A program made the position numbers and the translations under genes. Of a stretch of DNA of 64,000 nucleotides, positions 151 through 21,118 are shown one piece after another. This stretch comes from Rhododendron vialii (taxonomy: Eukaryota; Streptophyta; Magnoliopsida; Ericales; Ericaceae), in contig NC_080568.1 of assembly GCF_030253575.1 (NCBI RefSeq), positions 14,841,501-14,905,500 on the forward strand. Reading direction: 5' to 3'. Each line of letters begins with the position of its first letter. Position 1 is the stretch's first letter. Under the pieces are notes generated by a model that was not told the origin of the DNA, did no database searches, and saw nothing but the letters and a program-made list of their open reading frames with translations.

Positions 151-153
<3 letters not shown>

Positions 154-522
154 CTTCAAGTAAGGACCTTAAAATGAGGACCTTATATGTGGATCTCCCT
201 ATTTCACACCTTTCCCGATAGGATTTCGATGTTCAAGCCGCTCAATATGTTCAGAACGTGATTTTAAGGATACCCGCGAGAAATCGGCAAAAAAAATGAC
301 CGGGAAGGGCTTGATTTGAGCAGTTTTTATTTGAACCGTTCAATAAAAAACAAACAAAAACTGTTTGGATGAAGCACTTTCTGGTCTTTTTTTTTGCTGA
401 TTCCTCGCAGGTACCCTTAAAATTACATTCTGAACACATTGAGCGGCTCAGATCATCGAAATTCGATCGGGAAAGGGAGGTCCGCATTTTATTAAAATGA
501 GGTGGTCCTTATAAGAAGGGAA

Positions 523-524
<2 letters not shown>
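151..524. mobile_element. Hairpin MITE copy A, TA-microsatellite associated
   Basis: About 374 bp that folds on itself. The arm around 225-345 is an inverted copy of 375-480, with GAGCGGCTC-type and GGGTACC-type core motifs in both arms. The right end carries, in reverse complement, the TAAGGACCACC and AAAATGCGGACCTCCC motifs also found in the MULE-2 TIR. Both sides are (TA)n tracts. No protein is encoded. Confidence 0.75.

Positions 525-563
<39 letters not shown>
523..563. repeat. (TA)n microsatellite
   Basis: TA tract that separates MITE copy A from the left end of MULE-1. Confidence 0.9.
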
Positions 564-565
<2 letters not shown>

Positions 566-741
566 GGCCGGATCCTCCCACACAAAATTTAACACAAAAG
601 TTGACACTCCATCTCAGCCATTAAAATCGAGGGCTAAGATTAAAACTTAAACACCCCCTCTCTCTCCTCCCTCTAACGTCGTTCCTTTTCCTGGTTAAAG
701 AAAATAACATCGTTCTCCCTTCTCCTCAACCTCTCACGCCT

Positions 742-783
<42 letters not shown>

Positions 784-897
784 CTTTTCATCTTCGTCAA
801 GCCGCACTGCCACTGCCGTACGACGACTCCCTCGCATAATCAACCCAAAAGCTCCACTCCAGTACATTCAACAGGTATTCTTAAACATCCGTGTACA

Positions 898-944
<47 letters not shown>

Positions 945-1002
945 ACATGTACAGTTTATGTGCATAGCACTGTAACAGAGATGAATAGTTCCAGCCGAGT
1001 AA
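564..1002 (+). repeat. MULE-1 left TIR
   Basis: Inverted copy of 7147-7555, ending inward at CAGCCGAGTAA. It includes CT-dinucleotide tracts at about 739-778 and 901-938. In MULEs the TIR commonly carries the transposase promoter; CT-rich tracts are frequent in plant core promoters and 5' leaders, so promoter activity here is a reasonable inference. Confidence 0.88.
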
Positions 1003-1596
1003 AGATATTTGATTTATGCGTAGGGTTTAAATGATTGGGTCTTGGATTTTTGTTGGGGGTTTAAACAATTTTGGGTTTTGCATCAAACACATTGCCATGC
1101 ATGCCGGTCTTCGTTCACATTGATTTTTTCGAACATTAGGACTACTTGACGTAGCTCCCCTGTTTCCAACTCTTATTTATCCTAAACCCCTAAAAAAAAC
1201 ACGAGTTCTGCACAGAAAGCATTGGTTTGATTAGCACTATTATATAATGAATTGGTTTGATTCGGTGTGATTTATGAGTTTTCATTGTTTTTTCAATCAA
1301 TGATTCATTGCATAGAAATCAATAATCTAATTTATTGACATAAGCTATAGTTTATTGGGATTACATTGCATTGTTATCAATAATCTAGTTAGCGAATCAA
1401 AAAAAAATCTAGTTTATTGGGAGTACATTCAAAAAGTTAATTGGGATTACATAGAAAGCAATAATGTATACCTCTGGGGTGTCTTAGTTTGAATTATTTT
1501 TTTAAGTTTTTACCCTATATGTGTTGTATATTGAATAATTTGTTTTGGGCTGAAATTTCACTATAATAATTGTTTGTCCCTTGTCAAGGGTGAGCA
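1003..1596 (+). other. MULE-1 leader between TIR and transposase start
   Basis: AT-rich sequence without a recognisable coding region. It probably holds the 5' leader and perhaps a leader intron of the transposase gene, by analogy with MULE-2, where the start codon directly follows a splice acceptor. Confidence 0.4.
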
Positions 1597-3986
1597 ATGG
1601 AAGAACATTTTGATTTAGATGATTTCGAAGTAGAAGATTTGCAGGCTCCAAATAACGATGTGGAAGTGTTAGAATTGCCATCAAGTGAGATGTCTTTTGC
1701 GACAATTGATGAAGCACGAAAGTATTATGAAGATTATGGTCGACAAAATGATTTTTGGATTTGTACTCGAACTTCATCCAAAGGACAAAATCGGTCAAAT
1801 GAAGTGACTAGTATGCTATTTGTTTGCGCAAAAGAAGGCAAATATTGTGCCAGGCCAAAGAACGATGGTGTCGTGGAGGGGGATGATAAGAGAGAGGAAG
1901 ATGAGGAAGTGAGAACGAAGAAAAGATTTAGAAATCGTTCAACTGTTAGATGTGATTGCAAGGCCCATTTGCGGATTAGATATGACAAATGGAGTAGCAA
2001 GTGGAAAGTAACAGTTTTCAATGACACTCACAATCACCAGTTAGTGACTCCATCTAAGAGGATGAAAATGAGGTCAAATCGATACATGCCCAAACCAATT
2101 AAGGATTTGACCAAAGTATTTCAAAAAGAAAATTTGGAAGTTTCTAAAGTTGCTTCAATTTTCTATGGCGAATACATGGGCTTTGATAATAGAGACTGCT
2201 ACAATCACTTGAGGAATGTGAGGCATAAAGAGCTAGATGGCGGGGATGCACAATCAGTCCTCACCTACTTCAAGAACAAACAAGCACAGAATCCACAATT
2301 TTTCTATGCAATTCAATGTGATGAAAGTGGGAGAGCAGTGAATTTTTTTTGGGTGGACTCTCGATCTCGCATGGCGTACCAATATTTTGGGGATGTAGTC
2401 ACATTTGACACAACATATCGAACCAACAAATATGATATGCCTTTCGCACCATTTACTGGAGTAAACCACCACATGCAGTCAATACAGTTTGGATGCGCAC
2501 TTTTACAGGACGAGACTGAGGTAACATTTATATGGTTGTTTCAAACATGGCTTGAAGCTATGGGAGGACGTCCTCCAACTTCTATCATCACGGACCAAGA
2601 CTTGGCAATGAAAGGAGCGATTGCCCAAGTCTTTTCTAATACCCGTCATCGTCTATGCCTTTGGCACATTAAGAAGAAATTTGTTGAGAAGTTGTCACAA
2701 GTGTACTATAAGAAATCAAAATTCAAGAAAGATGTGAAAAAATGTATTTGGTTGACATATAAGAAAGAGGATTTTGAAGAGAGATGGATGGCATTGATGA
2801 AGGAAAATGGGTTAGAACATAATGAATGGCTTCTTCATGGGTACCCGTTTACAATCGTGGGACATTCTTTGCCGGTATGAATACTACTGGACGTAGTGAG
2901 GGTGTCAATTCATTTTTTGATGTTTTTGTTACTTCCACAACAAATCTTAAAGAATTTGTTGTCAAGTATGACCAAGCCTTGAAAAGGATTGTGAAAAGGG
3001 AAAGTGATGAAGATTTAAAGTCTGAGCATAAGTTTCGAATTGTGAAGGACAATGAATTTTTGTTGAAGCATGCGGCAAAAGTTTATACTAGAAACATCTT
3101 CAACAAGTTCAAGGATGAAATTAGTGAAGCCTTTAATTACAAAGTTGAAGAGATGACAAATGCCGATGGATTTCAATCGTTCGTGGTGAAGTCCAAAGTT
3201 AATGAACTTCAAAAGTTCACCGTGACATTGGATTCGCAAACCTACGAAGGTATGTGTGAATGTCAATACTTTGAGTTTGTTGGTATATTGTGCAGACACA
3301 TTTTGAAAGTGTTTGTCCGACTTGACATTGATGCAATACCGGATCATTTTATTCTTCCACGATGGAGGCAAAAGGCCAACAAATTTAGGATAATAGATTC
3401 TGAAGGTTTGGTGCATGACGATGGGAAAGAAGAATCCGAGGCGTTAAGACTTAGTCATATGTGTCAAGAATCTACCAAATTGGCTTGTTTGGCTGCCCCA
3501 TCATATGAGAGTTACAAAATTTACATTGAAGCTATGAATGATCTATCCGAGAAGCTCCTAAAAATTTCATCTTATGTGCCTCCTCCAATCAATGTTTGCC
3601 ATGAAAAGGATGATTTACATTCCACCGAGCGAACTCAAATATTGCTTTTGGATCCGAACATCTCGCAAACTAAGGGTAGGAAAAAAGATGTGAAGGGAAA
3701 AGATGCTACTATACACTCCGGAAGATTGAAAAGCGGTATAGAGTTGGGATTAAACAAGAAGAAAAGAAAGTGTAACTTGTGCGAAGGGATCGAACATGAT
3801 AAGAGAACTTGTCCTGAGAATCCGATGAGTAAAGCTAACAAAGGTAAGTGAATTACAAATTTTTTTGTGTAAAATGTTCTTATTTACTTGTCATAAATAT
3901 CCTTACTTATTCCTTACTCGTAATTTGCTTCCACAGCCTTAGAAACAGAAGCACAATCGTCTGATAGTGACCAAGAGATGATGTAA
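1597..3986 (+). pseudogene. FAR1/FRS-type MULE transposase of MULE-1, frame broken
   Basis: Transposase-like protein of the FAR1/FHY3/FRS family. Codons 1-427 (1597-2880) hold an acidic N-terminus and the FAR1 zinc-binding domain (about residues 35-150, ending in a DTHNHQ motif). The MULE DDE core follows, with D271 in TFDTTY and D333 in ITDQD and a CLWHIKKKF motif. A second open stretch to 3851 holds the WVPVYNRGTFFAGM segment, the SWIM zinc finger (CEC...CRH) and a CNLC...HDKRTCP zinc knuckle. Between NEWL and WVP only 5 nt remain where MULE-2 has 27 nt, so a 22-nt deletion shifts the frame near 2830-2840. A probable intron, 3844-3936 (GTAAGT...CACAG), joins a short acidic tail ending at 3986. 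MULE-2 has the same intron position and tail. The TIRs show that it is a transposon gene rather than a domesticated FRS gene. Confidence 0.88.
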
Positions 3987-3999
3987 TGAGAATATGGTA

Positions 4000-4943
4000 A
4001 TCGAAAACTTGCTTAACCTTCTTGATGTTTTCGCTAATTATGTTCCATGCACAATCTTTACTTAATTAAAGTAACCTTGTGTTTTGTACAGGGCAAAGCA
4101 TCTTGATGCCAAAGGATTGCTTTGAATGATCATGGAGTCTTTTTGGATATTTGCTCATGGAGTTTATGTACCTTTTTTTAATTTAATGATGGAAAACTCG
4201 ATTTTTGGGAACTTTTGGATGTTATTTTTGTGTAGTAAGGGTGGACCAACGCTAGATCTATTTTGCCGAATCATGTTTTTGTTTGCATAGTTGACTTTGT
4301 TGTTAACGTACAGGATTGTTCAAGTTGAATTGTTTTTTTGAAGGGCTGTTATGCTTCCAAAAGTTGTGTATGTCCCTTGTTTGTAGTTGAATTGGAGTTT
4401 TTTTTTCAACTCATGGGATTATGTACTATGCTGTTGAATCATGAGTTTTTTTTTTTTGGCATATTTGAATTAGAGGTTACCTTTACAAAATCGTTTGCTA
4501 TATATGTAACAGAATTGTTCAAGTTCAATTGTAGAATTGTTTGCCTAGGTTGGATCTCAACCATATGAAAAAATAGGGGAGGAGAGATGGTGTTCTTTGG
4601 AAAAAAGGTGGAGAGAGACAAGAATAATTCAACTCCAAAAGATGGGGAAGAGAGAAGCTGCAAATCTTGCAAATCTTCGCTTGGGAACACGAATAATGTT
4701 TGGATTCATTCACAATTCAAGTAGGCAATTGTCGAGCAAAAGTACAAATCATAAGAGACATACAAACTGTGCAAACTATAAATTGCGCGAATAAATGAAG
4801 CTACATAATTCAACTCCAAAAGCTCTATAACTCTCATTTTATTACATCATCAGTCAATCTAACAAAGCACACAATTGCAAAGTTAGATACAACACAAAAA
4901 AAAGATTTCAAAAGCTTGAACTAGCCTAGTTCAAGCTAGTTCA
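4000..4943. other. MULE-1 interior, no gene recognised
   Basis: AT-rich sequence downstream of the transposase with short open frames only. 4513-4530 echoes 4317-4334 (TTGTTCAAGTTGAATTG-like). Nothing recognised as coding. Confidence 0.4.
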
Positions 4944-5520
4944 AGCACACAATTGCACTGATGATTGGTTCTTGCATGAGCTTTTATCACAATAGTATTG
5001 GTCAATCACAATGGGGAGTTGGACTTCAAAAACTTGAATGTATGAGAAAAGTACTCCTTGCACAGACCCTGACCCACCTTGCAAAAGTATATTAGAACTA
5101 GGTAAGAATATCGGGTTGAGTTAGTAAAAAAATGGCTTTTTTAGGCGAACTTCTATGATATAGTACAAACTCCATATCGTCTGAAAACTTAATTTTACTT
5201 GAGTCTTTTTAGCGATTTCTATTGGTGAACAATTGGTTGCTTAGATTTGAGACTTTTTTGGTACTATGAAATCTTATCTGTTATCTCAAATTCGTTTTCA
5301 ATCAGATGAGTTCCAGATGGAATCTTTACCTACCATGTCTTTATCCTAACACCATTCATTGTGTTATGCATATTGATATCACGAACAGTAATGTTCGAGA
5401 CACATGCCATACTCGCATCCTTTCCTAGCCCACCAATGTTGATTCCATGTCCGGATCCACAGTTCACATTGTGTATGTACATATTTGTGCATCCAGTTTG
5501 TATAAAAACACAGTCATCTC
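4944..5520 (-). pseudogene. Captured polygalacturonase (GH28 pectinase) exons inside MULE-1
   Basis: Two exon-like blocks on the minus strand. The first, 5520-5334 (187 nt), begins after TTTGTGCAG and ends before GTAGGT, so both splice sites survive. It reads GDDCVFIQTGCTN, then VNCGSGHGINIGGLGKD, then NNTV-like NITVRDI, then GVRIKTW. These match the GH28 hallmarks GDDC, CGPGHGIS and RIKTW. The second block, about 5082-4944, reads QGGSGSVQGVLFSYIQV...PIVIDQYYCDKSSC, the usual next exon. The acceptor of the second exon looks decayed and a stop closes it at 4941-4943. The two blocks hold the catalytic Asp, His and RIK region only, a small part of a roughly 400-residue enzyme. It is most likely a gene fragment copied into the MULE with its intron (Pack-MULE-type capture), and unlikely to make active enzyme. 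Confidence 0.82.
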
Positions 5521-5599
5521 CTGCACAAAAGCATTAAAACTTGAGATCCTAGCATACCATTTACTTGATGCATTGACATTTTTTCTTTGCCTATGACTG

Positions 5600-6480
5600 T
5601 TATAAACTAGTTTTGTTGCGAGTTGTTAGCAGAAGAATACAAGGAGAAAAGGGAAGAAAGCATGTTCTTATTGTAGTGAAGACAAAAGAAAATTTTAATG
5701 ACCGACAAAAAGAGAAATGTCTTCCTGTGAATCCTGTCTGTGGGGCACGTGGGTTCAAACCTAATCTCTCTCAAGGCTTGACGCGTGTCCGGCCGGCCAC
5801 AACAAGCTTATACTGGACAAGGATTATATGACAGATGACTTGGTGTCATGTGTCTCAATATTAGTGGTTGAAAATTCAATTATGTGCTTGGTATATATGG
5901 TGGCTTTTAAAAGGATAAGTTTGGGGCATGATTTGGATGAATTTATCCCAGATGTCTTATCTCAATTTACCTAGGGCTCGTGTCAATTAAGCTAACAGTG
6001 ACATTTATTGGACACTAGTTCATATCAGATAACCTTGATTTTGGACTCTAGAGATCTTTTCAAGAGGAGTAACAGAGATTAATGAAAAAACTAAATAGGG
6101 CTGGCTTAGTTGGCCAGAATTTTGGTGAGGCCAACGGTTCGAATTCTACCATAGGCAAGATTCCCTCCTCCATGCTACAGATAGCCTCCTGATGTACGAA
6201 AAAAGGGGTTTTTTACTAGTTCACTAATAGAGTACAATGCTTTCTATTCAAAACAGGACCCAAATTGGCATAAATTCCAAATTCTTTGCTTTGATCACAA
6301 CATCCTTGCACACGATCTCATGCTGTATTGCTTTTAACTATTATGAGCATAGTGAATTTTGGTTATGAGGAATGCACAACATAGGAGAGCTGACGATAGT
6401 GGATATACAAACAGACGTGAATTCCCAGTCGGAATCCATCAAACTTATGTTTACCTAAATTAAGCTCCAGAAAGATAGAT
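5600..6480. other. MULE-1 interior, no gene recognised
   Basis: No convincing coding region. 6097-6160 has a tRNA-like arrangement, GGCTTAGTTGGCC followed by ACGGTTCGAATTC (box A and box B-like), which may be the head of an old tRNA-derived SINE. A second box B-like motif (GGGTTCAAACC) lies near 5750. The rest may be non-coding parts of the captured genes. Confidence 0.4.
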
Positions 6481-6514
6481 GGAACACATTCAGTTTCAAA
6501 AGAAAAAAATTAAG

Positions 6515-6962
6515 CAATGGTTCCATTTTTGCATCTGCATTTTCTGAAGACTAATTTTACTGTTGAACCAAAATAAGGAGACCTTAACACTTACAATGTC
6601 AAGAGCAAAATGGCAGAAAAAAGCGTAAGTACTCAAACACAAAAAGGCCAAAACCACAAAAGCATACTTCTTGTATGCAATAAGTTTGGCCAATGCAATA
6701 TTTTCCTGGTTCATAAATCCAAAACATGACACATCAGTAAAGCTAATATGACCATTACAAGAAAACCCACCACATGAAATTTGGAAAAGACCCAAATAAG
6801 ATTATACCTTGACAAGATGATTAATGTGTTCCTTCGCCGAGGAATCGGTCCGTGAGAGCTTTTTATCGGGAAAGGGGACTTGGGTTGTGGAATTAAGTTG
6901 GTTATATCTGATAGCCTATTCCTTACTACACTCCCAATCTCAAAAGAAGACCTCTTCGCCAT
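6515..6962 (-). pseudogene. Captured shugoshin-like gene fragment inside MULE-1
   Basis: Three minus-strand pieces in the order expected for the N-terminal part of a plant shugoshin (centromeric cohesion protector). Piece 1 (6962-6808) starts MAKRSSFEIGSVVRNRLSDITNL and ends, in a shifted frame, EHINHLVK before a GTATAA donor. Piece 2 (6705-6668) follows a CAG acceptor and reads ENIALAKLIAYK before GTATGC. Piece 3 (about 6560-6515) follows a CAG acceptor and reads KISLQKMQMQKWN. Plant shugoshins carry an RLSDITN-type start and a coiled coil with ENxxLxKLIA and LQKVQxQNW elements. The frame change in piece 1 and the loss of everything further C-terminal make this a dead fragment. The identification rests on short motifs. 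Confidence 0.55.
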
Positions 6963-7146
6963 TCTTTCCCCTTTCAGCATTATACCCAGTAGCCCAATAA
7001 AACCCTAAGTAAAACCCACAACCCAAACTGGGAAAATTGGCAAAAGAGGTTCAGATAGAAACCCTAGAAATATGGGGGAAAGAAAGCAATGTCTACAAAA
7101 GATATGGGGGTAGATACTTGTTTAGATTTAAAAGAAATTAAAAGGG

Positions 7147-7555
7147 TTACTCGGCTGGAACTATTCATCTCTGTTATAGTGCTATGCACATAAACTGTAC
7201 ATGTACAGAGAGAGAGAGAGAGAGAGAGAGAGTTATGTACACGGATGTTTAAGAATACTTGTTGAATGTACTGGAGTGGAGCTTTTGGGCTGATTATGTG
7301 AGGGAGTCGTCGTACGGCGGTGGCAGTGTGGCTTGACGAAGATGAAAAGGCGTGAGGGAGAGAGAGAGAGAAAGAACAGGCGTGAGGGGTTGAGGAGAAG
7401 GGAGAACGATGTTATTTTCTTTAACCAGGAGAAGGAACGACGTTAGAGAGAGGAGAGAGAGGGGGTGTTTAATTTTTAATCTCAGCCCTCGATTTTAATG
7501 GCTGAGATGGAGTGTCAACTTTTGTGTTAAATTTTGTGTGGGAGGATCCGGCCCC
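7147..7555 (-). repeat. MULE-1 right TIR
   Basis: Inverted copy of 564-1002, ending GGATCCGGCCCC. It carries GA tracts at 7207-7230 and about 7360-7372, shorter than the CT tracts of the left TIR. Confidence 0.88.
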
Positions 7556-7561
7556 TAAATT

Positions 7562-7643
7562 TTCTCGATATCAGATCGAGAAAGGCGAGAAATGGGAGGT
7601 CCGCATATAAGGTCCTTATTTTAAGGTCCTTACTTGAAGATTT
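7562..7643. repeat. Duplicated end fragment of MITE copy B
   Basis: About 80 bp nearly identical to 7951-8023, the right end of copy B. It lies directly against the right end of MULE-1, which suggests MULE-1 inserted at or beside a MITE of this family. Confidence 0.75.
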
Positions 7644-7649
7644 CTGTAT

Positions 7650-8021
7650 ATGAGTCCCCTTCTTATAAGGACTACCTTATTTTAATAAAATGCGGACCTC
7701 CCTTTTCCGATCGAATTTCGATGATCCAAGCCGCTCAATGTGTTCAAAATGTGATTTTAAGGGTACCCGCGAGAAATTAGCAAAAAAAAAGACAATGAAG
7801 GGCTTTATCCGAGCAGTTTTTGTTTGTTTTTTATCTAACGGTTCAAATAAAAACTGCTCAAATCAAGCCCTTCCCGGTCATTTGTTTTGCCAATTTCTCG
7901 CGAGTACCCTTAAAATCACGTTCTGATCACACTGAGCGGCTCGGATCATCGATATTAGATCGGGAAAGGCGAGAAATGGGAGGTCCGCATATAAGGTCCT
8001 TATTTTAAGGTCCTTACTTGA

Positions 8022-8023
<2 letters not shown>
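7650..8023. mobile_element. Hairpin MITE copy B, TA-microsatellite associated
   Basis: About 374 bp with inverted arms around a core that includes GAGCGGCTC and GGGTACCC-type motifs. The left end has TAAGGACTACC at 7666-7676 and AAAATGCGGACCTCCCTTTT at 7687-7706. The first is identical to 8308-8318 and the second shares its first 17 bases with 8331-8347 in the MULE-2 TIR. The right flank is (TA)n. Confidence 0.78.

Positions 8024-8078
<55 letters not shown>
8024..8078. repeat. (TA)n microsatellite
   Basis: TA tract of about 55 bp between MITE copies B and C. Confidence 0.95.
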
Positions 8079-8079
<1 letters not shown>

Positions 8080-8207
8080 CTTACCGTGCGGGACCCCTCA
8101 TTGAATCCCGAGTGTATGTGTGTGTACACATATACACACACACTCGGGATTCAATGAGGGATCCCGCACAGCCTTACCGTGCGGGATCCCTTAGGAGATC
8201 CGGACTC

Positions 8208-8210
<3 letters not shown>
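8079..8210. mobile_element. Hairpin MITE copy C, mostly ends
   Basis: Short palindrome built from CTTACCGTGCGGGA-type ends and an ACTCGGGATTCAATGAGG arm on both sides of a TGTACACA centre. The same end sequence bounds copy G at 20690-21048, so this is an internally shortened member of that subfamily. Both flanks are TG/TA microsatellites. Confidence 0.65.

Positions 8211-8226
<16 letters not shown>

Positions 8227-8292
<66 letters not shown>
8227..8292. repeat. (TA)n microsatellite at the left end of MULE-2
   Basis: Pure TA tract of about 66 bp that runs into the first base of the MULE-2 TIR. A (TG)n stretch precedes it. Confidence 0.95.
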
Positions 8293-8294
<2 letters not shown>

Positions 8295-8297
<3 letters not shown>

Positions 8298-8563
8298 GGT
8301 TTTCTCCTAAGGACTACCGTAAGTTAAGCAAAAATGCGGACCTCCCTCCTAGCCGTTGGATCTAATCCAACGGCTGAGCTCTAAAAACCAAATTCGCGGG
8401 TTAAACAAGGGCACTGTTCACGGGTTATTTCAAAACGGGTTAAAGCACAAAACGGGTCCTCATTACTCATCACGCGAACAGAAAAAAAAGAGCGAGAAAG
8501 AGGGAGGCGATTGGCGATTCAGAACAACGAAGAACATAGAAGAAGAAGATCGATCAGATTCAG

Positions 8564-8622
<59 letters not shown>

Positions 8623-8912
8623 TCTGTAGGGTTTCGGACTGAAGTTTGGGTTTCAAACCAACTGGGAACTAGAGTTAGGGATTTGAAATTGAACCCTTAA
8701 TTCGAAATTAATTCGAACCAGTTGGGGTTTGTTGAGTTTTGGGATCAAATCTATGGTTTGGATTTGTATGTGCCCTTGTTTAGGCATTTTTTCCTCCTGA
8801 TACAGAGCATCAAAACGAAACACCATGCCAATGGGATGGGATTGTAGCCGATAAAAAAGAAACAAATAGGGATGGGATTTTTTTATCCTTGGGAGACTTA
8901 TACGGGTAATGT
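8295..8912 (+). repeat. MULE-2 left TIR
   Basis: Inverted copy of 13493-14092 over about 600 bp. It contains TAAGGACTACC (8308-8318), AAAATGCGGACCTCCCT (8331-8347), a self-complementary GTTGGATC...GATCCAAC-type stretch near 8354-8375, and a (CT)n tract at about 8562-8618. It ends inward at TACGGGTAATGT. The (CT)n plus the GTAGGGTTTCG that follows looks like a plant promoter or leader region. Confidence 0.9.
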
Positions 8913-9208
8913 CCATACTATTATTTGATATTATTTAATCCATATATTCATCCTTTCTCTTTTCATTTTCGTTAATCCATATATTATCATCAAGTTTATC
9001 CCACAAATTTAAGCTTTTCTTCCTCCTTTTTTTTTTCCCTTACAGTAAATCTATTTAGGGATCACAGTTCCGAACACAAAACTAGTGACTTGACAAGAAG
9101 TCAACAGTTTTAAGCTGAATTTCATTCCATTTTTTGGACTAATCATATTCGTAAGTACTGTTGATTCGTTTTTTCTATTTTATTTATTGTTCTCTATCGT
9201 TTTGTAGG

Positions 9209-11582
9209 ATGCAATCGTTGGATGATATACAACTATTGTCACCGTCACCATCTTTACTGGCTCAATCATCTATGAATCCGGTTCAATCATCTGCGAATTC
9301 TTCTGAGGTACTTATCAATCCTCAAGTTAAAGACGAATTCATACCGAAAATTAAACAGCAGTTTGCCAACATAGAGGAATTTGAGACGTTTTACAACGGT
9401 TATGCTAAACAAGCAGGATTTAGTATGCGAATCCATTGTACCAAGACTAATAAGAATGGTCAAATTACTAGGAGGGAGCTTGTTTGTTTCAAACAAGGGC
9501 GGAAACACCCAAGTATTGGGCCCGTAAAACGCAAACGGGGTATAATTAGAGAGGATTGTCACGCAAAAGTGACCGTTGTGAGAAGAGGTGAAGGATTTGA
9601 AGTCTCCCAATTTGTCGAGGGTCATAACCACCCTCTAACGACCCCAAGGAAGGTGCATTTGTTGCACTCTCATCGTAAAGTGACACATGCACAAAAGTCT
9701 TTAATGCAACAACTTGGAGATGCCAATGTACCACCCTCTCAACAGATGAGTATTTTGGAGTTGCAATGTGGAGGTCTTGAAAATGTTGGATTTACAAAAC
9801 AAGATCTTTACAATGATAAAAGGAATAGGAGGAAATCAATAGATCGACATGACGGGAATATGATGTATGAGTATTTGCAAAGGGAAAAAGAAAAGAATCC
9901 TGGGTTTGCGTTTACATTCGAGACGGATGATGAGCAGAGGATGACCCATTGTTTTTGGGCCGATGCGAACTGTAGAAAGTCATACAAGTATTTTGGGGAC
10001 GTGGTGGTGTTTGATAGTACCTACGACACAAATAAATATTCTTTGATCTTCGCACCTATAGTAGGGGTTAATCACCACGGGCAGACAACGCTTTTCGGGT
10101 GTGCATTCTTAAGTGATGAAACTTGTGAGTCGTTTGAGTGGTTTTTTAAAGAATGGTTGAAAGCGATGCCAGGAGGCCCGCCCAAAGTGATCATAACCGA
10201 TCAGGATCCGGCAATGGCAAAAGCAATTGCTTCTACACTTCCAAATACGCATCACAAGTTATGCATTTGGCACATTCTTAATAAATTTTCTCAAAAACTA
10301 GGTGCACTATCATATATGCAACATTATGAGGAGTTCAAAAAATGTATATGGAATTCCGAGAACCCAGATGAGTTTGAAACAAGATGGTTAGACATCGTGC
10401 AAAAAGCAAACTTGTCTAGCAATGAATGGTTAAATGACATGTACGCAATCCGTGAGAGATGGATTCCTGCATATAGGAGACACATTTTCTCTGCCCACAT
10501 GACTAGTAGTCAAAGAAGTGAAAGTGATCATGCATTCTTTAAGAGGTACGTGTCTAAGAATAATTCATTGTTGGAGTTTGTGACACGGTTTGATAGGGCA
10601 CTTTCACATATACGGCATAATGAATTGGATTTAGATCATAAAGATGTCAATGAGAAGCCTGTGTTGAAAACCTCGTGGTTGATGGAAAAGAGAATGAGTG
10701 AATTGTATACGCGATCTATTTTTTATAAGTTCCAAGAGGAAATCCATCAGAAGGATGCTTATGTGTTTACGAAGACGGATGAGGATGAACATCGTTATTT
10801 GTGGAATGTTCAGAGGGCAGAAATGGAAGGTTCAAGATGTCGTGAGATTTCGGTAAATAAGTCATCAAACCATGTCAGCTGTAGTTGTAAGATGTTTGAA
10901 TTCGATGGAATTCCATGTCGGCACATGCTAGCGTATTTTGCTAGAATGCAGATTATGGCACTGCCAGATCAGTACATCTTGCGAAGGTGGACTGTAGCAG
11001 CAAAAGCTAGCAGGGTTCTGGATGACTTGGGCGGGGAAAGGGGGAAAGAAATTTGTGGCAATTCAATGTTAATGAGGCGACAGCGTGTGTTCCAACTATT
11101 TTCGAATGTAGTTGATGACGCCGTATTAACTGAAGATGGAACACAAATGTTGGAAGAAGCTTTGGAATCAGTTACAAAAAGGGTTGCACTCATGAAAATT
11201 TCTCGCGAAGATGGCGAAGGGAGTGGTTTCCTTGTTCCTATCTCTCTTGGAAGCCAACTTAGGTATAAAGAACCACTTCCCGTCAGGGCAAAGGGTTGTG
11301 GTAAACGACTCAAGGGAGGAAAAGAGAAGGCTGTCAAGGCATTAAGGAAATGTCATGGTTGTGGGTTAACTGGCCAATCACATGACAAAAGAAACTGTCC
11401 AAAACTTCTCAACATGTACGTATATGCATCTAAGTATGTTCATGTATAATTTAAATCCTATTGCTACACAAAGTTTAAATTCTCAACATGATGTCTTTTT
11501 TCTTAGGTCTTCGCAAGATGTGAGGTTGAATGATGAGGACGACGATGAGGACGACGATGAGGACGACACTGATAATGAGTGA
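9209..11582 (+). CDS. FAR1/FRS-type MULE transposase (MULE-2)
   Basis: Predicted transposase of 760 residues in two coding exons, 9209-11415 and 11507-11582, joined in frame across a GTACGT...TTCTTAG intron. The ATG at 9209 is chosen because it directly follows a splice acceptor (TTTTGTAG at 9200-9207). The upstream in-frame ATG at 9161 would lie in a leader intron starting near 9150 (GTAAGTAC). Domains in order: FAR1 zinc-binding DNA-binding domain, about residues 50-150, ending GHNHPL; MULE DDE core with D269 in VFDSTYDTNKY and D331 in ITDQDPAMAKA, then HHKLCIWHI; SWIM zinc finger CSC...CRHML near residues 558-573; CCHC-like knuckle starting C715; and a DE-rich tail in the last exon. The frame is open throughout. 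Host FRS genes have the same domain order, but the flanking TIRs identify this copy as a transposon gene. Expected site of action is the nucleus, at the element's TIRs. Confidence 0.92.
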
Positions 11583-12465
11583 AAATTGTAAGTGTTTGTA
11601 CTTGTTATTATTAATTGTTTAAATTTTTATTGTTACAAGTGTTTGCAATATTTTTTCTTTCCTTAATTCATCTTATGATCTATTCGTGCTTCAAGGATGG
11701 AAAAATGACTCGTGAGAAGATGAGGTCGTGCGGAAATGACTGGATCAAGTGTTGAAAGTGCTCAATAAAAATAGAATGTGTTTTTTTTTTTTTTGTATTT
11801 TTCTGTTAGATATGGCTACTCATAGAGAGATTGTTTTGTCATCAAGTTGCTAATGTTGGTTGATATTGTATATTCTAAGTTGGAGCTCGTGTTTTTTTCC
11901 CCTGTTTAACTTGTTCTAAACCTGATGGCGGTAGGTGTTCTTTTTTCCTTCAGAAAATTGGATTGCAATATTATCCTCTTGTTACCAGATGGTTTGGACC
12001 ATGTTGCTATTTGGAGTTATGTAATGTAAGGACTATGCTCTTTATCCTGCGCTTTCTTGTACTGATGTATCAGTATGTCCCTAGGTCAAAAAGAAATCTC
12101 CTGTTCTTCTCCCTTTGTTTTAGATGTAGTAGTATTTCCCAGAGAGAGTAGACTCATTTGTGATGATATTCTTTTTCTGGTGAACATGGAAGAATTTCAA
12201 CAGCTTGTTCGTGACTTAACTTTATGATGATATTCTTTTTCTGCTCTTGGAATATCAATCCTTGGAAAGAAATGACATTTGCAGTAGAAAAAGTAAAAGA
12301 ATTCATATACCAAATTGATAATTTGTCCATCAACCATAACATTAGCAATGAGAAATAACCAAGTTTTGCTCATTACAAGGTCACAAGGTCCATAGCATTA
12401 GAAATAACCAAGTTTTACTCATTACAAGGTTACAAGGTCCATCATCCTAAAGCTTAAAAAAAAAA
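11583..12465. other. MULE-2 interior after the transposase
   Basis: Transposase 3' region, with an AATAAAAATAGAA stretch near 11762 as a possible polyadenylation region, then AT-rich sequence with a local duplication: the AGAAATAACCAAGTTTTGCTC block at about 12351-12382 recurs at about 12401-12440. No gene recognised. Confidence 0.45.
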
Positions 12466-12846
12466 ATTGCTTGGAGATCATCCAGCTCCTCTTGAACCAT
12501 ATCTCTCTGCTCAAGTGCTATTTTCAATTGATGCGCAAGTGGTTGTTGGTCATGGGAACCATCGGACTCCTCGCTAGATGAACCTATTCAAATATCATAC
12601 ACAAAATGAAGACAAAAATGACATAATCAACAAAATGGTACTCATCAGTTAGATCTTATAATAGTCAAAGAACCTTACAAGAAAACAACAGCCATGACAT
12701 TCTAATTTGCATTTGGGAGCCCAAAGCATCCACATTCTCTTTCCAACCTGACATTGCAAGATACTCATTGGAGATCCACATTCAACATTACAATGCACAA
12801 GTGCATTTGGATCGAAATGTGAGACAGCCACTTCACTAATGCTAAT
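12466..12846 (-). pseudogene. Possible GRF-type zinc finger plus coiled-coil fragment in MULE-2
   Basis: Two minus-strand pieces. The first, 12846-12646, has a Cys-rich stretch with CNVECGSPM, VGKRMW and CKLECHGCCF and ends FFDYYK. This is reminiscent of, but poorer than, the plant GRF zinc finger (CxCG...NPGRRFW...C...CxFF). The second, 12583-12466, follows a TAG acceptor and reads SSSEESDG...LKIALEQRDMVQEELDDLQ, a short heptad-like segment of the type that follows GRF fingers in plant proteins. No start codon precedes the first piece in frame. It could be a decayed accessory gene of the MULE or a captured host fragment. Assignment is tentative. Confidence 0.3.
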
Positions 12847-13492
12847 CTAACACCACCACTAAACACAAAAGATGCATCATTTTCCATAAACAAAAACCAG
12901 TTCAAAACGATAATTACCAAACCAAACAAAAAAAAAGACATTACTTTTTTTCTGGTTGGAAGTGATTTCTGACATTAGAAATACATTTCGAATCTCTGAT
13001 TCCTGAGATTCCAGGCCTCCTCCACAAGGAAAGATAAAATTTTAGTTTTTTCCGGAAATGAAAAGTTCACTTTGCAGATTCCTAAATTATAGTACTGTAG
13101 TTGAATGAACGGGAATAACTAGGAAATTAAACTACTCCTACTACTATATTTGACTGGACGTAGTTGAATTCTCCGACTGATACGGCCATTCTCACATATT
13201 TTCATTCCCAAACATTTTTCCTTTGCCCAAAAAATATACTAACCGAAATTAGTAAGTAGAGATACCCAACCCAACCAGTCTGATTTTCATCATCAAATAC
13301 AAAATAAATAAAACGATAAAATTGGAACTGCACAGCGGTTCAGTTTCTTACATCAATTGAGAATTCAATTACAAAAAAAACACCTTTTCAAAAAAAATTA
13401 CAAAAAAAAAACCTAAACATGAAACGAAAATCAATAAGGACCAAATCAGCGCAGTTATTGAAACGGAAATCAATAAGAACAAAAAAACCTAA
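12847..13492. other. MULE-2 interior, no gene recognised
   Basis: AT-rich sequence with A-rich runs and no coding signal, between the minus-strand fragment and the right TIR. Confidence 0.4.
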
Positions 13493-13775
13493 ACATTACC
13501 CGTATAAGTCTCCCAAGGATAAAAAAATCCCATCCCAATTTTTTTCTTTTTTATCGGCAACAATCCCATCCCATTGGCATGGTGTTTCGTTTTGATGCGA
13601 GCAAAAAATGCCTAAACAAGGGCACATACAAATCCAAACCATAGATTTGATCCCAAAACTCAACAAACCCCAACTGGTTCGAATTAATTTCGAATTAAGG
13701 GTTCAATTTCAAATCCCTAACTCTAGTTCCCAGTTGGTTCGAAACCCTAACTTCAGTCCGAAACCCTACAGAAGG

Positions 13776-13826
<51 letters not shown>

Positions 13827-14092
13827 TGAATCTGATCGATCTTCTTCTTCTATGTTCTTCGTTGTTCTGAATCGCCAATCGCCTCCCTCTTTCTCGCTCT
13901 TTTTTTTCTGTCGCGTGATGAGTAATGAGGACCCGTTTTGTGTTTTAACCCGTTTTGAATAACCCGTGAACAGTGCCTTTTTTTAACCCGCGAATTTGGT
14001 TTTTAGAGCTCAGCCGTTGGATTAGATCCAACGGCTAGGAGGGAGGTCCGCATTTTTGCTTAACTTACGGTAGTCCTTAGGAGAAAACCTCC
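13493..14092 (-). repeat. MULE-2 right TIR
   Basis: Inverted copy of 8295-8912. Its GA tract (about 13779-13822) is shorter than the CT tract of the left TIR, so the two TIRs differ mainly in microsatellite length. Confidence 0.9.
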
Positions 14093-14108
14093 GTATATAT
14101 ATATATAT

Positions 14109-14471
14109 AGAGGTTCAAGGGACACCTAAAAAAACACCTCAAATTTCAATCTCATAGTTTCCGATCAAATTTTTATGATCCGAACCGTTTAATGTGTGCA
14201 GAATGTGATTTTAAGGGTGCCCGGGAGAAATTAACAAAAAAAAATGACCGGAAAAGGCTTGATTTGAGCAGTTTTTATTTGAATCGTTCAATAAAAAACT
14301 GTTCAAAACTGTTCGGATCAAGCCCTTCCCGGTCATTTTTTTTGCTGATTTTTCACGGGTACTCTTAAAATCATGTTCTGATCACATTGAGCGGCTCGGA
14401 TCATCAAAATTTGATCAGAAACTATGAGGTGTTTTTTTAGGTGTTTTTTTGGGTGTCCCCGGAACCGCCCC
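14109..14471. mobile_element. Hairpin MITE copy D, second end type
   Basis: About 363 bp with the family core (GAGCGGCTCGGATCAT and its inverted partner) but different ends. Here the ends read GGGACACC...AAAACACCTCA on the left and the inverted equivalent on the right, and the AAATGCGGACCTCCC motif of copies A, B and F is absent. TA tracts lie on both sides. Confidence 0.75.
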
Positions 14472-14510
14472 GATATATATATATGTATGTATATGTATGT
14501 ATGTATGTAT

Positions 14511-14766
14511 ATCATAAGTTTAATAGTATGAATTACGTCAAACAAAAAGTACCAGATCAAATCGGTAAATGCTTTTTTTGAGCAGATCAAATAGGTTAAG
14601 GCAGCTTATCAGAGTCTAATTGGACCATCATATATAAATATCATAAGTTTACTAGTATGAATTACGTCAAACAAAAAGGACCAGATCAAATCGGTAAATG
14701 CTTTGTTTTAACAGATCAAATAGGTGAAGGCAGCTTATCAGAGTCTAATTGGACCATCATACTCCT
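14511..14766. repeat. 129-bp tandem repeat, two full copies
   Basis: Units begin at ATCATAAGTT (14511) and ATCATAAGTT (14640). The window's first 95 bases are another copy. The array is split by the transposon block from about 96 to 14510. Confidence 0.9.
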
Positions 14767-15756: not shown

Positions 15757-15782
15757 CATATAAATGAAGCATGCATGCACCA
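15757..15782 (+). promoter_or_regulatory. Candidate TATA box and RY-type motif of the HAK gene
   Basis: CATATAAATGA (about 15757-15767) stands about 125 bp upstream of the start codon and is followed by CATGCATGCAC, an RY-type repeat. Spacing suits a transcription start near 15790. This is motif evidence only. Confidence 0.4.
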
Positions 15783-15891
15783 AATGAGTGAGACTCAACC
15801 TTTAGACAGATCATATATATGATCTGGAGTAGTACTGGTGGGGCGGTTGCTGCTGTATTTGATCGATCCTATATAGAAAGAACAAATTAAG

Positions 15892-16035
15892 ATGGAAAAT
15901 GAAAAAGAGAATGAGCAGGAGACGATTAAAGAGAGAAAAGGGTCGTGGGCAAAGTTGCGATATGTGGACTCCCTCAACATGGAGGCTGGCAGAATTACTG
16001 TTTCTCAACCCCACAGGCACACCTCCCATGTTAGT

Positions 16036-16107
<72 letters not shown>

Positions 16108-19100
16108 TCACACCGCACCACACCCAGACACCCTTTGTAGTTTTCGGTCAAAATTGTTTACTTTGACGATTTTTTTAAGGGAAATTTTTAAAAATGGTCC
16201 CTCTAGTTTGCACGAGTTCTCATTTTTGTCCCTCTACTATTAATTGTATCAATTTTGTCCCTGTAGTTTTCATTCCATCTCAATTTCGTCCTTCTCCCTG
16301 ACGCTGTCCATGAAACAAACGGAATTGAAGGGCAAAATTATCATTTTCTCTCACAGAGGGACCAAATTGAAATTTTATGCAAACCAGAGGGATTATTTTT
16401 AAATTTTACATTTTACTTTCGTTTTTTGCAAATAAAATAAAAAAAGACCATAAGTAATGTATTTGACAACTGAATTATTTTTTATTGGGTAATCAAACTA
16501 TATTGAAAATTTTATATTTCATTACACATTACAAAAATATTAGAAAATGCACAAATCAACCCCTTAGCTAATGTCTTTGTATCATGTTCTTATAATCTTC
16601 TTATTTTTTCACCCAATAAAAAAAATGTTTAAAATCCGTGTTTATTTATTATATAAGTGATCTTATGAGTAAGTCCCAAAATAAATACACTTATACCCAT
16701 ATTTTAATGTATTTGATCTCTTAATATTTAATGGTGTTTCATTGCTTAATTAAACACAAGATTTCTAAATACTACTTAACAACTTTTTCTTTTTAATCAT
16801 GTGACAAAAAAAATAAAGATAGTGAAAATTCAATTGAAAAAAAAAATACAAGACCAAGACAATTATCATAAGGGTTGTTTTTCGAATTTTCTCATATTTT
16901 TTGTGATGTATATAATAAAAACTTTACAAAATTTCAACATATTTTTTATTATTCAATATAAAATGAGATGAGAAATATATTATATATGATGTATTTTAAA
17001 TTTATTTACAAAAACAAAAGTAAAAAACAAAATTATAGAAATAGTCCCTCTAGTTTACATGAAATCTCAATTTAGTCCCTCTGTGAGGAGAAATGATAAT
17101 TTTGTCCTCCAATTTCGTTTGTTTCATTAACGCCGTAAGCGAGAGGGACGAAATTGAGACAGAATGCAAATTATAGGACTAAAAGTAACACAATTGATAC
17201 TAGAGGGACGAAAATGAAAATTCATGCAAACTAGAGAAACCATTTATAAAAATTTCCCTTTTTTTAAAGTATAAGATTCATCAGAAAAGTTAAGAAGTTT
17301 TCAAATGATGAAAATATAGCTTATGGTTATGTTGCTTATTTTAATTGAACTTCTACAAAAAAATATTAATTTTTTTACTTTTCAAATTTCTCTGCCCAAA
17401 GGAATAAAAAGGAAAACAATTTTGAAAAAATAAAAATATAACATTCGTTACGTTTCAGCTAAATTTGTGTTCTCCTCTCTCTCGCCCCTCTTTTTTGTAA
17501 AGTGATTTACCTTTCCTTCTTAATTGATTATTACAACTTCTAGCAAGAGCAGATGGGCTTGGTACAAATGGAGTCACTCCACCCGTTATTTTTTATTTCT
17601 AAACAACCAATTTTATATATTAGAGTCAAATTTTGTTATATGAACCCGACAAAAAATTCTTAAATTGCCTCAACTTATTTCAATATGAGTCAAAATAAAA
17701 AATTTCAAATGTTCTCCTCGCGAGTCGATAGTATTACAATAGAGACTATCAAACATCATTCTTAGTGTACGTATGAAAGGTCATCGGAGTCATGAATTAT
17801 AAACCAATGTTAAATTTATCCATAGAGATCTACTTAAGGGTAGTGATTTTGCCACTCTCCTTTTTGTTAATACCACTCTCTTTTGTGTCTTAATTAGATG
17901 ATTTGTTTTGTGAGAAAATGGGAGTGACATTAACAAAAAAGGGAGTGGCAAAATCAATTTTCCTACTTAATTGTTTGATTAACTTCTTAATTCAATCATT
18001 GTTTCCGATTAGCAAATAGGAAAAGTAAGTCATATGGCTCTAAATTGTTGAACCCATTAATGTCCATGTAAGTTAGAAGTTAGAAGGATCATGAATGAAA
18101 GATCGATGGAATAACTAATTAAATAATATTTTTAAATCGGAGAATAATTAATTAAAGATGAATCGAGGGGACTTAATTAACTACGTAAGTGGTGCAGGTA
18201 CATTGGAAGGTAACATTGCGTTTAGCATTTCAGAGCCTAGGGATGATATATGGTGATGTAGGTACCTCCCCATTGTACGTGTTCTCCAGCACTTTTCCGG
18301 ATGGGATTGACCACACCGACGACGTTTTGGGAGTGTTATCTCTCGTTATCTACACCATTATCCTTTTGCCCATGATCAAATATGTCTTTATAGTCCTTTC
18401 GGCTAATGATCACGGTGACGGTACGTGATCAATACCACCTAACTGCTCCCTCGTTACTAAATTAGTTATAGTGTGTGTATATATCATTTTTGTACACATG
18501 TTTATCCACTAACTTTATAAAATGGACATTTATTAAAGGATATCTCAAAACGGAATATCGAATTCTAAAATAAGGATGGACGGAGTAATTTTTTGAGGTT
18601 AACTATTAGTAGTAATGAATGTCAAAGTATAGTACCAACTCACTGTACGTAGTTGATTTTGAAAATAATAAATTCACGTTCTCTGATCGGTGGTAGTATA
18701 TACGTCACTGATTTGTTTTTTATACCGATAAATATTAAGCAGTAATTGTATTCGTAGGGGGGACATTTGCGCTGTATTCGTTGATATGCCGGTATGCAAA
18801 GGTAAGCTTCATACCAAATCACCAGCCAGAGGATAGACAACTATCAAACTACAACCTAGACATACCATTCAACCATTTGAAAAGGGCTCAAAAGATCAAA
18901 CACAAGCTCGAAAACAGCAGATCCGCACAACTCTCGCTCTTCCTTCTCGCCATTCTGGGAACTTCCATGGTCATTGGGGATGGGGTTCTTACTCCCTGCA
19001 TCTCAGGTAATTAACTATTACTCTGACTTTAGACTAATTTTTTTTGGGATTGGTCAAGTGAAAGCATGACAATAAATGAGAAATTTTCTCTCAATCTCAT

Positions 19101-21048
19101 AGGTTTTGATTCCACTGCCAGCCATTAATTTGTCCAACTGTTAGATTCATGGCACCGAGATTAATCAAGGCGTGTATACACAAGAAGAGACCCCATTAAT
19201 TTGTCCAACTGTTAGATTCATGGCACCGAGATTAATCAAGGCGTGTATACACAAGAAGAGACCCCATTAATTTGTCCAACTGTTAGATTCATGGCACCAA
19301 GATTAATCGAGGCGTGTATACACAAGAACTGACCCGATTATCCAAGGAAAAAAAAAAGTCTTTTTCATGATGTTTATTTTCATTTTTATCTATTAAATTT
19401 GTTTTTTATTAAATAAATTTATGATCTGATTGGTTTCAACTAGAGAAGGACAGGTATAATATATATACACACACACACACACACAGAGTTCAGTTCACTA
19501 GAAAGGGTTTGATTTGAGTAGTTTTTTATTGAACATTAAACTGTTCAATAAAAAACTGTCCGAATGAAGCCATTCCCAGTCTTTCTTTTTTTTTTGCTGA
19601 TTTCTCACAAGTACCATTAAAATCACGTTTTAATCACATTGAGCGGCTCGGATCATCGAAAATTGATCGGGAACAATGAGGTGCAAACCGTAACAAAATC
19701 CCTGACTGGTTATGTATATACGGTCAGGATCTATTCAGGGATCCCTGACCTAAGCTTAGGTCCGCACCTCTCCTTTCTTGATCAAATTTCGATGATTCGA
19801 GCCGCTCAATGTGTTCAAAAGTGATTTTAATGTAAAAAAATGCTCAAATCAAGCCATTTTCGGTCATTTTTTTTGCTAATTTCTCGTGGGTACCCTTTAA
19901 ATCACGTTTTGAACATATTGAGTGACTCGAATCATCGAAATTCAATCAGGAACTGGGACATGCGAACGGTTTGGACGGTAAAAGGGTGTGGACTTGAACC
20001 ATTGGGGGGGGGGGGGGGGGGGTGGCGGCGGTTCGCGGACAACCAATTAAACACTTAGAAAAACACCCAAAATCTCAATCGCATAGTTCCCAATCAAATT
20101 TTCACGATCCGAACCATTCAATATGTGCAGAATGTGATTTTAAGGATGCTCGCGAAAAATTAACAAAAAAAATGACAGGAAAGTGCTTGTTTTGAGCAGT
20201 TTTTAATTAAACTATTCATCAAATCTAAGCTAAAAACTGCTCAAATCAAGCCTTTTCCGGTCTTTTTTTTTTTGCTAATTTATCATGTGTACTCTTAAAA
20301 TCACGTTCTAATCATATTGAGCGGCTCGGATTATTAAAATTTGATCGAAAACTATGAGGTATTTTTTTAGGTGTCTAATTAGTTGTCTCCAGATATATAT
20401 ATATATATACACACAGTCAGTCTTAAATGAGAGAGTCCTTATTTTAGTTAAAATGCGGACCTCCTAATTTCTCCCATTTTCCAATTGAATTTCGATGATC
20501 CGAGCCGCTCAATGTGTTCAGAACGGTCATTTTTTTTGCTGATATCTCGCGGGTACCCTTAAAATCACGTTTTGAACACATTGAGCGGCTCGGATCATCG
20601 AAATTCAATCAGAAAAGGGAGGTCTGCATTTTATTAAAATAAGGTGGTCCTTACGGGAGACGGACTCTGTATATATATATATATATATACAGTCCGGATC
20701 TCCTAAGGGATCCCGGACGGGCTTACCGTGTGGGACTCCCCTTTCCCGATCGAATTACGACGATCCGATCAGCTCAAAGTGATCAGAACGTGATTTTAAC
20801 GGTACTTGCGAGAAATCAGCAAAAAAAATGATCGGAAAAGGCTTCATCCGAACAGTTGTTTATTGAACGGTTTAGTAAAAAACTGTTCGGATCAAGCCCT
20901 TCCCGATCACTTTTTCTGCCGATTTCTCGCGGGTACCCTTAAAATCATGTTCTGAACACTTTGAGCGGCTTGGATCGTTGCAATTCGATTGGGAAAGGGG
21001 AGTCCCGCACGGTAAGCCCGTGCGGGATCCCTCATTGGATCCCGAGTA

Positions 21049-21118
<70 letters not shown>

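What the first reader, a model, noticed from the sequence alone, without database searches (positions are those of the whole stretch)
151..21115. A hairpin MITE system with one conserved core and at least three interchangeable end types, all lying in (TA)n microsatellites
At least seven copies (A 151-524, B 7650-8023, C 8079-8210, D 14109-14471, E 19450-20395, F 20411-20670, G 20690-21048) occur here. Those with an interior share an inverted core (GAGCGGCTC..., GGGTACCC..., CGAGAAAT... motifs). The outer 40-60 bp fall into three types: AAAATGCGGACCTCCC (A, B, F), AAACACC (D, E2), and CTTACCGTGCGGGA with GGATCC (C, G). Every copy abuts a TA or TG/TA tract. Micron elements of rice are known to sit in TA microsatellites; a core that keeps its hairpin while changing its ends would suggest end-swapping that lets one hairpin use different transposases.
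Basis: partly seen in the sequence, partly recalled or inferred. Interest (0 to 1): 0.82.

Follow-up and report, generated by a model that had tools for sequence, protein, structure and literature searches.

The report
One hairpin transposon, many borrowed ends
In this plant genome one small hairpin of parasitic DNA sits at more than a thousand places, mostly in TA repeats, and wears at least eight kinds of ends, most of which resemble the ends of larger, gene-carrying jumping elements that probably move it.

Summary
The copies are short non-autonomous Mutator-like elements (MULE MITEs) stacked in (TA)n tracts, with two FAR1-type MULEs in the same array. Stacking of this kind is published (SaTar, MuTAnT, Ac-mMITE). 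The one-core-many-ends pattern I did not find in print. An exact core 20-mer occurs 2033 times in the genome. 189 sampled ends form 23 clusters, 13 with two or more members; cores with different ends stay about 82% identical while the ends align little better than chance. Relatives of the window's MULE carry ends of the same classes. In autonomous MULEs ends and adjacent sequence diverge together; in the MITEs they do not. MULE lineages differ by dS 0.54-1.13, MITE cores by K2P about 0.21. I conclude that the core was re-capped with ends of several MULE lineages, about once per subfamily: core and end groupings agree almost completely (20 changes, minimum 18), so ends are not freely shuffled. 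Conversion or constraint on the core is not excluded, and the commonest end class has no identified transposase.

The parts
94..150 (.). (TA)n tract left of element A, 57 nt
151..524 (+). MITE A: core 209-473 with end clusters k20 (left) and k14 (right)
526..563 (.). (TA)n tract between A and MULE1, 38 nt
564..7555 (+). MULE1: TIRs 564-1002 and 7147-7555 (90% identical); FAR1/MULE/SWIM transposase in two overlapping frames 1594-3851
7559..7646 (.). Fragment of a MITE end like the right end of B (7565-7651 matches 7949-8035 at 94%)
7650..8023 (-). MITE B: core 7702-7969, end clusters k14 and k20, inverted relative to A (90% over 434 bases)
8024..8077 (.). (TA)n tract right of B, 54 nt
8079..8210 (.). 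'C': truncated G-type end, TG/CA tract, and an element of two G-type ends without core
   Evidence: by eye; end scores
8228..8293 (.). (TA)33 tract left of MULE2
8294..14093 (+). MULE2: putative autonomous MULE; TIRs 8278-8912 / 13493-14109 (with some tract) 95% identical; its terminal ~50 bp match MITE end cluster k14 and are followed by the inner motif AGCCGTTGGATnnATCCAACGGCT
9155..11449 (+). MULE2 transposase, open frame 764 aa: FAR1 DNA-binding, MULE transposase (PF10551), SWIM zinc finger
14110..14472 (+). MITE D: core 14158-14422, type II ends (k1, k1)
14509..14761 (.). Two 129-bp tandem monomers; a further copy flanks the array at 1-93, so the array 94-14508 lies between copies of one repeat whose unoccupied junction has only ATATATAAATAT
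19497..19690 (.). E1: loop plus right arm of a core with a weakly type II-like end
19700..19990 (.). E1b: damaged second copy, left end weakly G-type
20040..20392 (+). E2: complete copy, type II ends (k1, k2)
20410..20669 (+). MITE F: shortened core, ends k17 (left) and k14 (right)
20690..21050 (+). MITE G: core 20741-20998, type III ends (k6, k6)
21061..21115 (.). (TA)n tract right of G, 55 nt

Best explanation
These are non-autonomous Mutator-like elements of the microsatellite-targeting kind. Each has an inverted-repeat core of about 255-265 bp and, on each side, a terminal 'cap' of about 50 bp that abuts a TA (or CA/GA) tract. Shown: one core lineage carries many cap classes; 6 of the 8 cap families I distinguish have a best-matching cap on an autonomous FAR1/MULE element of the MULE2 clade; cap and adjacent DNA diverge together in the autonomous elements sampled but not in the MITEs. 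Inferred: the cap is the part the transposase reads; each subfamily arose when the core gained the caps of a different MULE lineage (or, equivalently, when a MULE lineage's short derivative took in the core) and was then amplified by that lineage's transposase. Stacking of unlike elements in one TA tract, with fusions such as E1/E1b and C, would bring cores and foreign caps side by side; that this is the route is a guess.
For: Cap clusters: 189 ends, 23 clusters; within clusters cap identity 0.800 and core 0.847; between clusters cap 0.489 (0.603 where 30 nt or more overlap; shuffled ends 0.571) and core 0.817. Autonomous relatives: of 15 MULE caps, the best MITE clusters are k14 (MULE2, L096, L107, L106), k17 (L104, L108), k13 (L097, L102, L105), k11 (L103), k16 (L112), k6 (L101), k10 with k8 second (L113, L110) and k19 (L109), z 6.8-14.5. 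MULE pairs with adjacent-DNA identity 0.72-0.84: 0 of 12 have cap identity below 0.62; MITE arm pairs in that range: about 60% of 7562. dS between MULE lineages 0.54-1.13 against mean K2P 0.208 between MITE cores of different cap pairs (58 cores), a factor of about 2.6-5.4. Non-coding DNA of two closely related MULE pairs (4-fold K 0.05) is 80% over 197 and 83% over 235 nt, no closer than MITE cores with no shared cap cluster (82% over 249 nt, 400 pairs). A short extension beside the core lies on the same side of the core for several cap pairs (24 of 25, 15 of 18, 5 of 5, 4 of 4). In the L103 family cap and TIR are at both ends of one element (97%).
Against: Type II caps (k1 alone is 45 of 189 ends) match no autonomous cap (z 2.1 or less against k1 and k2), and a pattern joining that cap to the inner motif had 0 hits. 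Cap cluster does not follow transposase lineage strictly: L103, L104 and L107 (dS 0.28-0.30) have best matches k11, k17 and k14; even the close pairs L097/L112 (dS 0.06) and L108/L109 (dS 0.08) have different best clusters (k13/k16, k17/k19), so the assignment is noisy. Core and cap groupings agree, so no repeated swap of one class is proven (type II p 0.28, 14/17 p 0.18). Only 12 MULE pairs, not independent, fall in the comparable range, and their adjacent DNA includes a conserved motif. The extension is absent from the (16,16) and (6,6) elements (0 of 6, 0 of 3), is on the other side in a few singles, and was defined after looking. Cores could look young through gene conversion or constraint.
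Confidence: 0.6

Rival explanations
1. Ordinary subfamilies: an ancestral MITE with an ancestral cap split together with its MULE, and caps evolved fast with the transposase; no cap was ever swapped.
For: Core tree and cap pairs agree (20 changes, minimum 18); types I and III share a weak outer motif; MULE caps of different clusters share short motifs such as GCGGAC; closely related MULEs differ in best cap cluster.
Against: In the autonomous MULEs sampled, caps do not outrun adjacent DNA; MITE cores are about 2.6-5.4 times less diverged than synonymous sites of the matching MULE lineages.
Confidence: 0.21
2. Old subfamilies whose cores are kept alike by gene conversion among many stacked copies, or by selection on the core.
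For: 70 of 114 elements lie within 300 nt of another, and 33 of 37 linked neighbour pairs differ in cap family, so the chance for exchange is high; some core columns are nearly invariant.
Against: Conversion between subfamilies should break the agreement of core tree and cap class, which is nearly complete. Between-cap identity is fairly even along the core (25-column windows 0.73-0.88) and the stem shows next to no excess of kept pairs (0.906 against 0.897).
Confidence: 0.14
3. One reading: ends are swapped often and freely, so that any core can carry any ends.
For: L037 and window copy E2 have type II ends on cores that group with cores of clusters 6 and 4/9 (100/88, 99/90). Cluster 6 elements are not one clade (p 0.0098).
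Against: Holding all 22 type II rows together is not rejected (p 0.28) and E2 has a long branch; 81 of 81 elements have both ends of one family.
Confidence: 0.05

Closest known systems
SaTar elements and AgS-MULEs, guayule and rice (PMC5907723: abstract, Results part 1 of 2, Discussion part 1 of 2 and passages seen)
   Same: Short non-autonomous MULEs flanked by (TA)n and other microsatellites, in linear arrays; some copies with TSDs outside tracts; TIRs like those of microsatellite-targeted autonomous MULEs.
   Different: Elements in a SaTar array are described as unrelated to each other. Here most copies sampled share one core and differ in the terminal ~50 bp, and those ends match several MULEs.
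MuTAnT / AutoMuTAnT, Medicago truncatula (PMC4486113: parts 1 and 2 of 4 seen)
   Same: Foldback MULE-MITE in (TA)n, with a Jittery-like autonomous partner and 9-nt TSDs in the few copies outside perfect tracts; empty sites shorter than occupied ones.
   Different: Two subfamilies and one autonomous element; no change of ends on a common interior described in the parts seen.
Ac-mMITE, pineapple (PMC8449440: abstract and Results part 1 of 2 seen)
   Same: Very abundant MULE-derived MITEs in (TA)n, clustered by adjacent insertion.
   Different: The two families share TIR similarity; here it is the interior that is shared and the ends that differ. No autonomous partner was found there.
MULEs with tandem TIRs and Pack-MULEs (PMC3310237: passages only)
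   Same: Discusses MULEs taking in other sequence, possibly including extra TIRs.
   Different: Extra TIRs are added in tandem; here the outer end differs on a common interior.
Micron, rice (known here only through PMC4486113 and PMC5907723)
   Same: TA-microsatellite MITE; PMC5907723 places it with MULEs by TIR similarity.
   Different: Sequence not compared here.

Membership tests
Mutator-like element (MULE) superfamily | Autonomous member encodes a MULE transposase | tested here: met
   PF10551 E 3.4e-32, FAR1 and SWIM domains in the MULE2 frame
Mutator-like element (MULE) superfamily | Target-site duplication of about 9 bp | tested here: met
   Of 12 elements without tract on either side, L015 has an exact 9-bp repeat by script; L042 an exact and L061 an 8-of-9 repeat read by eye. 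The script (exact 9-mers of three or more letters) found none in the other 9. Inside TA tracts it cannot be read.
SaTar / microsatellite-targeted MULE MITE | Most copies flanked by microsatellites | tested here: met
   80 of 114 both sides, 22 one side, 12 neither
SaTar / microsatellite-targeted MULE MITE | Linear arrays of elements joined through microsatellites | tested here: met
   70 of 114 elements within 300 nt, core to core, of another; window array 94-14508
SaTar / microsatellite-targeted MULE MITE | No element interrupts another | tested here: inconclusive
   Not checked systematically; in the window a MITE fragment abuts MULE1 (7556-7646) and E1/E1b are fused
[quoted passage not shown]
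   MULE2 cap against k14 z 12.0; L103 against k11 6.8; L112 against k16 10.1; L109 against k19 14.3
SaTar / microsatellite-targeted MULE MITE | The same for the most common end class (type II) | tested here: not met
   No match among 15 autonomous caps of the MULE2 clade; one pattern search 0 hits; other MULE clades not searched
MITE | Short, non-coding, many copies, inverted repeats | tested here: met
   Core median 265 nt; 2033 exact core 20-mers. Lack of coding capacity was not tested on the genome copies.
Rice Micron | Sequence similarity to Micron | not testable with these tools
   No Micron sequence at hand

The most novel reading that the evidence does not exclude
A single MITE core behaves as a lodger that has moved between deeply separated MULE transposase lineages of one genome by exchanging both of its terminal modules, at least five times (six cap families with a MULE counterpart) in the time its own sequence diverged about 20%, with stacking in TA tracts as the meeting place.
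Probability: 0.45. Interest if true: 0.75.

Novelty: new variant of a known kind. Interest (0 to 1): 0.6.

Why it matters
How MITEs outlive the loss of their transposase, and how one MITE comes to depend on a new one, is usually argued from TIR resemblance alone (my general knowledge). Here one interior can be followed across several end classes, most with candidate autonomous partners in the same genome, so a switch of transposase could be dated and tested directly. The stacked TA arrays give a concrete place where ends could be exchanged.

Tried and rejected
Hairpin kept by selection: no support. Core or relatives in other collections: one exact core pattern each found nothing in viral contigs and genome contigs; the MULE2 protein found no relative in viral contigs; these tools warn that records of the window's own genome may be left out. 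Six end and core strings were found in 0 papers. An autonomous partner for type II among the MULE2 clade: not found. MULE1 as source of any MITE cap: its ends reach no significance against the others. Palindromic caps as a feature taken over from the MULEs: 2 of 15 MULE caps have fold z below -2, while k17, k11, k16 and k6 have mean z -2.6 to -3.9 (at most 15 members of each scored; k1 is +0.8); unexplained. Rhododendron as host: 13 contigs and 532.6 Mb fit my recollection of that genus, nothing more.

Sampling limits. Core copies come from the 100 listed places of an exact 20-mer, all on contig C1 up to 32.7 Mb, of 2033 in the genome, plus neighbours in the same stretches; 86 overlapping loci gave 114 two-armed elements in 71 loci. 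Copies far from an exact 20-mer were not sampled. Only ends with a tract 38-75 nt from the core edge entered the clustering (177 of 228 ends, plus 12 window arms). The K2P table and column analysis use the earlier set of 58 cores. MULE relatives: of 62 matches, 20 were fetched upstream; caps were cut for 14 of these plus MULE2, for 10 by motif and tract and for L101, L102, L105, L106 and L110 by anchors I chose (L106 lacks the inner motif, L101 has no tract near). L095, L098, L099, L100, L111 and L114 gave no usable cap. One search uses 14 of the 15. Coding pieces: 9 plus MULE2. In one search single-member clusters were put with the family of their partner, which is circular for those few.
Full report
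What is there. The first 21 kb of the window hold two stacked arrays. The first reads: tandem monomer, (TA)28, MITE A, (TA)19, MULE1, end fragment, MITE B, (TA)27, the C pieces, TG/TA tract, MULE2, short TA tract, MITE D, TA/TG tract, tandem monomers. The second reads E1, E1b, E2, F, G; TA or TA/CA tracts lie left of E1, between E2, F and G, and right of G. The finding did not mention MULE1 (564-7555) and MULE2 (8294-14093), which carry FAR1/MULE/SWIM transposase frames. MULE2's frame is open over 764 aa; MULE1's lies in two overlapping frames. Of 10 TA runs of 10 nt or more in the window, 9 border these elements or the MULEs. The 129-bp monomer flanks the first array on both sides, and the junction of two unoccupied monomers has only ATATATAAATAT, so the long tracts seem to have grown with or after the insertions. 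That growth is inference; MuTAnT empty sites are also shorter than occupied ones (PMC4486113).

What the elements are. They are MULE-type MITEs of the kind published as SaTar (PMC5907723), MuTAnT (PMC4486113) and Ac-mMITE (PMC8449440). Support here: tracts at both ends in 80 of 114 elements, at one end in 22, at none in 12; 9-bp duplications in copies outside tracts (L015 exact by script; L042 exact and L061 8 of 9 by eye, out of 12 such elements); and ends shared with MULE2. This much is ordinary.

One core, many caps. The core consensus is a hairpin of 121 pairs (58 cores). An exact 20-mer of it has 2033 hits in the genome and none for the reversed control; an element can hold two, so there are at least about a thousand elements. 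Next to the core the sequence changes class. In 189 ends there are 23 clusters, 13 with two or more members. Within a cluster caps are 80% and cores 85% identical; between clusters cores are still 82% identical while caps fall to about the level of chance (0.603 where 30 nt or more overlap; shuffled 0.571). All six window copies analysed belong to classes of the genome sample: A and B (14,20), F (14,17), D (1,1), E2 (1,2), G (6,6).

Caps belong to MULEs. Of 62 matches to the MULE2 protein I fetched 1.7 kb upstream of 20. Twelve of 21 regions, MULE2 included, have an inner motif AGCCGTTGGATnnATCCAACGGCT; in 10 of these 12 it is preceded by a cap of about 55 bp that follows a TA or CA tract. Fifteen caps were cut in all, five of them by anchors I chose, and each finds a best MITE cluster at z 6.8 to 14.5: k14/k17/k13, k11, k16, k6, k10/k8 and k19. 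In my grouping into eight cap families, six have such a counterpart; type II (k1, k2) and the 4-9 family do not (best z 2.1, 1.9 and 3.4 for k1/k2, k4 and k9). For the L103 family both ends of one 8.4-kb element carry the cap and TIR at 97%. A search with L109's end finds both ends of L108's element (82% and 78%) but only one end of L109's own. The same test for L112 and L113 did not complete.

Why I read this as re-capping. First, at comparable identity of the adjacent DNA (0.72-0.84), none of 12 autonomous MULE pairs has caps below 0.62 identity, against about 60% of 7562 MITE arm pairs. Second, MULE lineages are separated by dS 0.54-1.13 (within lineages 0.06-0.30), MITE cores with different cap pairs by K2P 0.208 on average (5-95%: 0.141-0.278). 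By non-coding DNA, MITE cores of different caps (82% over 249 nt) are about as close as two MULE pairs with 4-fold divergence of only 0.05 (80% over 197 nt, 83% over 235 nt), while the pair MULE2/L096 (0.20) is already at 67%. Third, a short extension beside the core sits on the same side of the core for several cap pairs (24 of 25, 15 of 18, 5 of 5, 4 of 4), though it is missing in (16,16) and (6,6); so the interior is one polar unit. Fourth, both ends of an element are of one cap family (81 of 81, expected 24.3), as a shared transposase would demand, while linked neighbours mostly differ (33 of 37).

What speaks against it, and what stays open. Core and cap groupings agree (20 changes against a minimum of 18), and one origin per class is not rejected for the two largest classes, so swapping was rare, perhaps once per class. 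Related transposases have different best clusters: L103/L104/L107 (dS 0.28-0.30), and even L097/L112 (0.06) and L108/L109 (0.08); their caps are nevertheless 66-86% identical to each other, so part of this is noise in the assignment, and a cap is not a strict badge of a lineage. The MULE comparison rests on few, dependent pairs. Core conservation by conversion or selection is made unlikely but not excluded. The commonest cap class has no known partner. Why several MITE caps are near-perfect palindromes while most MULE caps are not is unexplained.

Known or new. Nine literature searches in a library of open-licence PMC papers listed nothing that, from titles, abstracts and the passages I opened, describes one MITE interior under the ends of several MULE lineages. 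Most subscription papers are not in that library, so this is weak evidence of novelty. I file it as a new variant of a known kind.

Noticed in passing
window 16172-17269: Another non-autonomous MULE-like element with 300-nt arms (78% complementary), apparently flanked by a 9-bp duplication TTTTTTTAA (read by eye), right of the only long TA tract (16039-16105) that borders none of the reported elements.
   Followed up: partly
window 1-93 and 14509-14761: A 129-bp tandem monomer flanks the 14.4-kb array on both sides; the array seems to have grown inside one short TA run of this repeat.
   Followed up: partly
L020 and L048: Two or three cores in a row without TA tracts, joined to a different flank ending in CTCCGTTAAATA(C/G); the core also lives in another, tract-free setting.
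   Followed up: no
MITE end clusters k17, k11, k16, k6: Many caps are strong palindromes with different stem sequences, unlike most caps of the autonomous MULEs.
   Followed up: partly
L111: Upstream of a MULE relative (53% protein identity) lie two MITE copies with k11-like caps (by eye), and the MULE's own cap region holds a similar GGGCGCCCTTA motif.
   Followed up: no
window 56549-57074, 59655-59997, 60119-60431, 37322-37595: Further long palindromes (77-92% self-complementary in self-BLAST), perhaps other hairpin elements.
   Followed up: no
window 27646-28587: Minisatellite with a 55-bp unit, about 11 copies to 28260, followed by related repeats.
   Followed up: no
window 44940-46031, 52019-52516, 54223-54849: Pieces of a K+ transporter (PF02705/PF22776), a DHHC palmitoyltransferase and a zf-RVT reverse-transcriptase remnant.
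   Followed up: no
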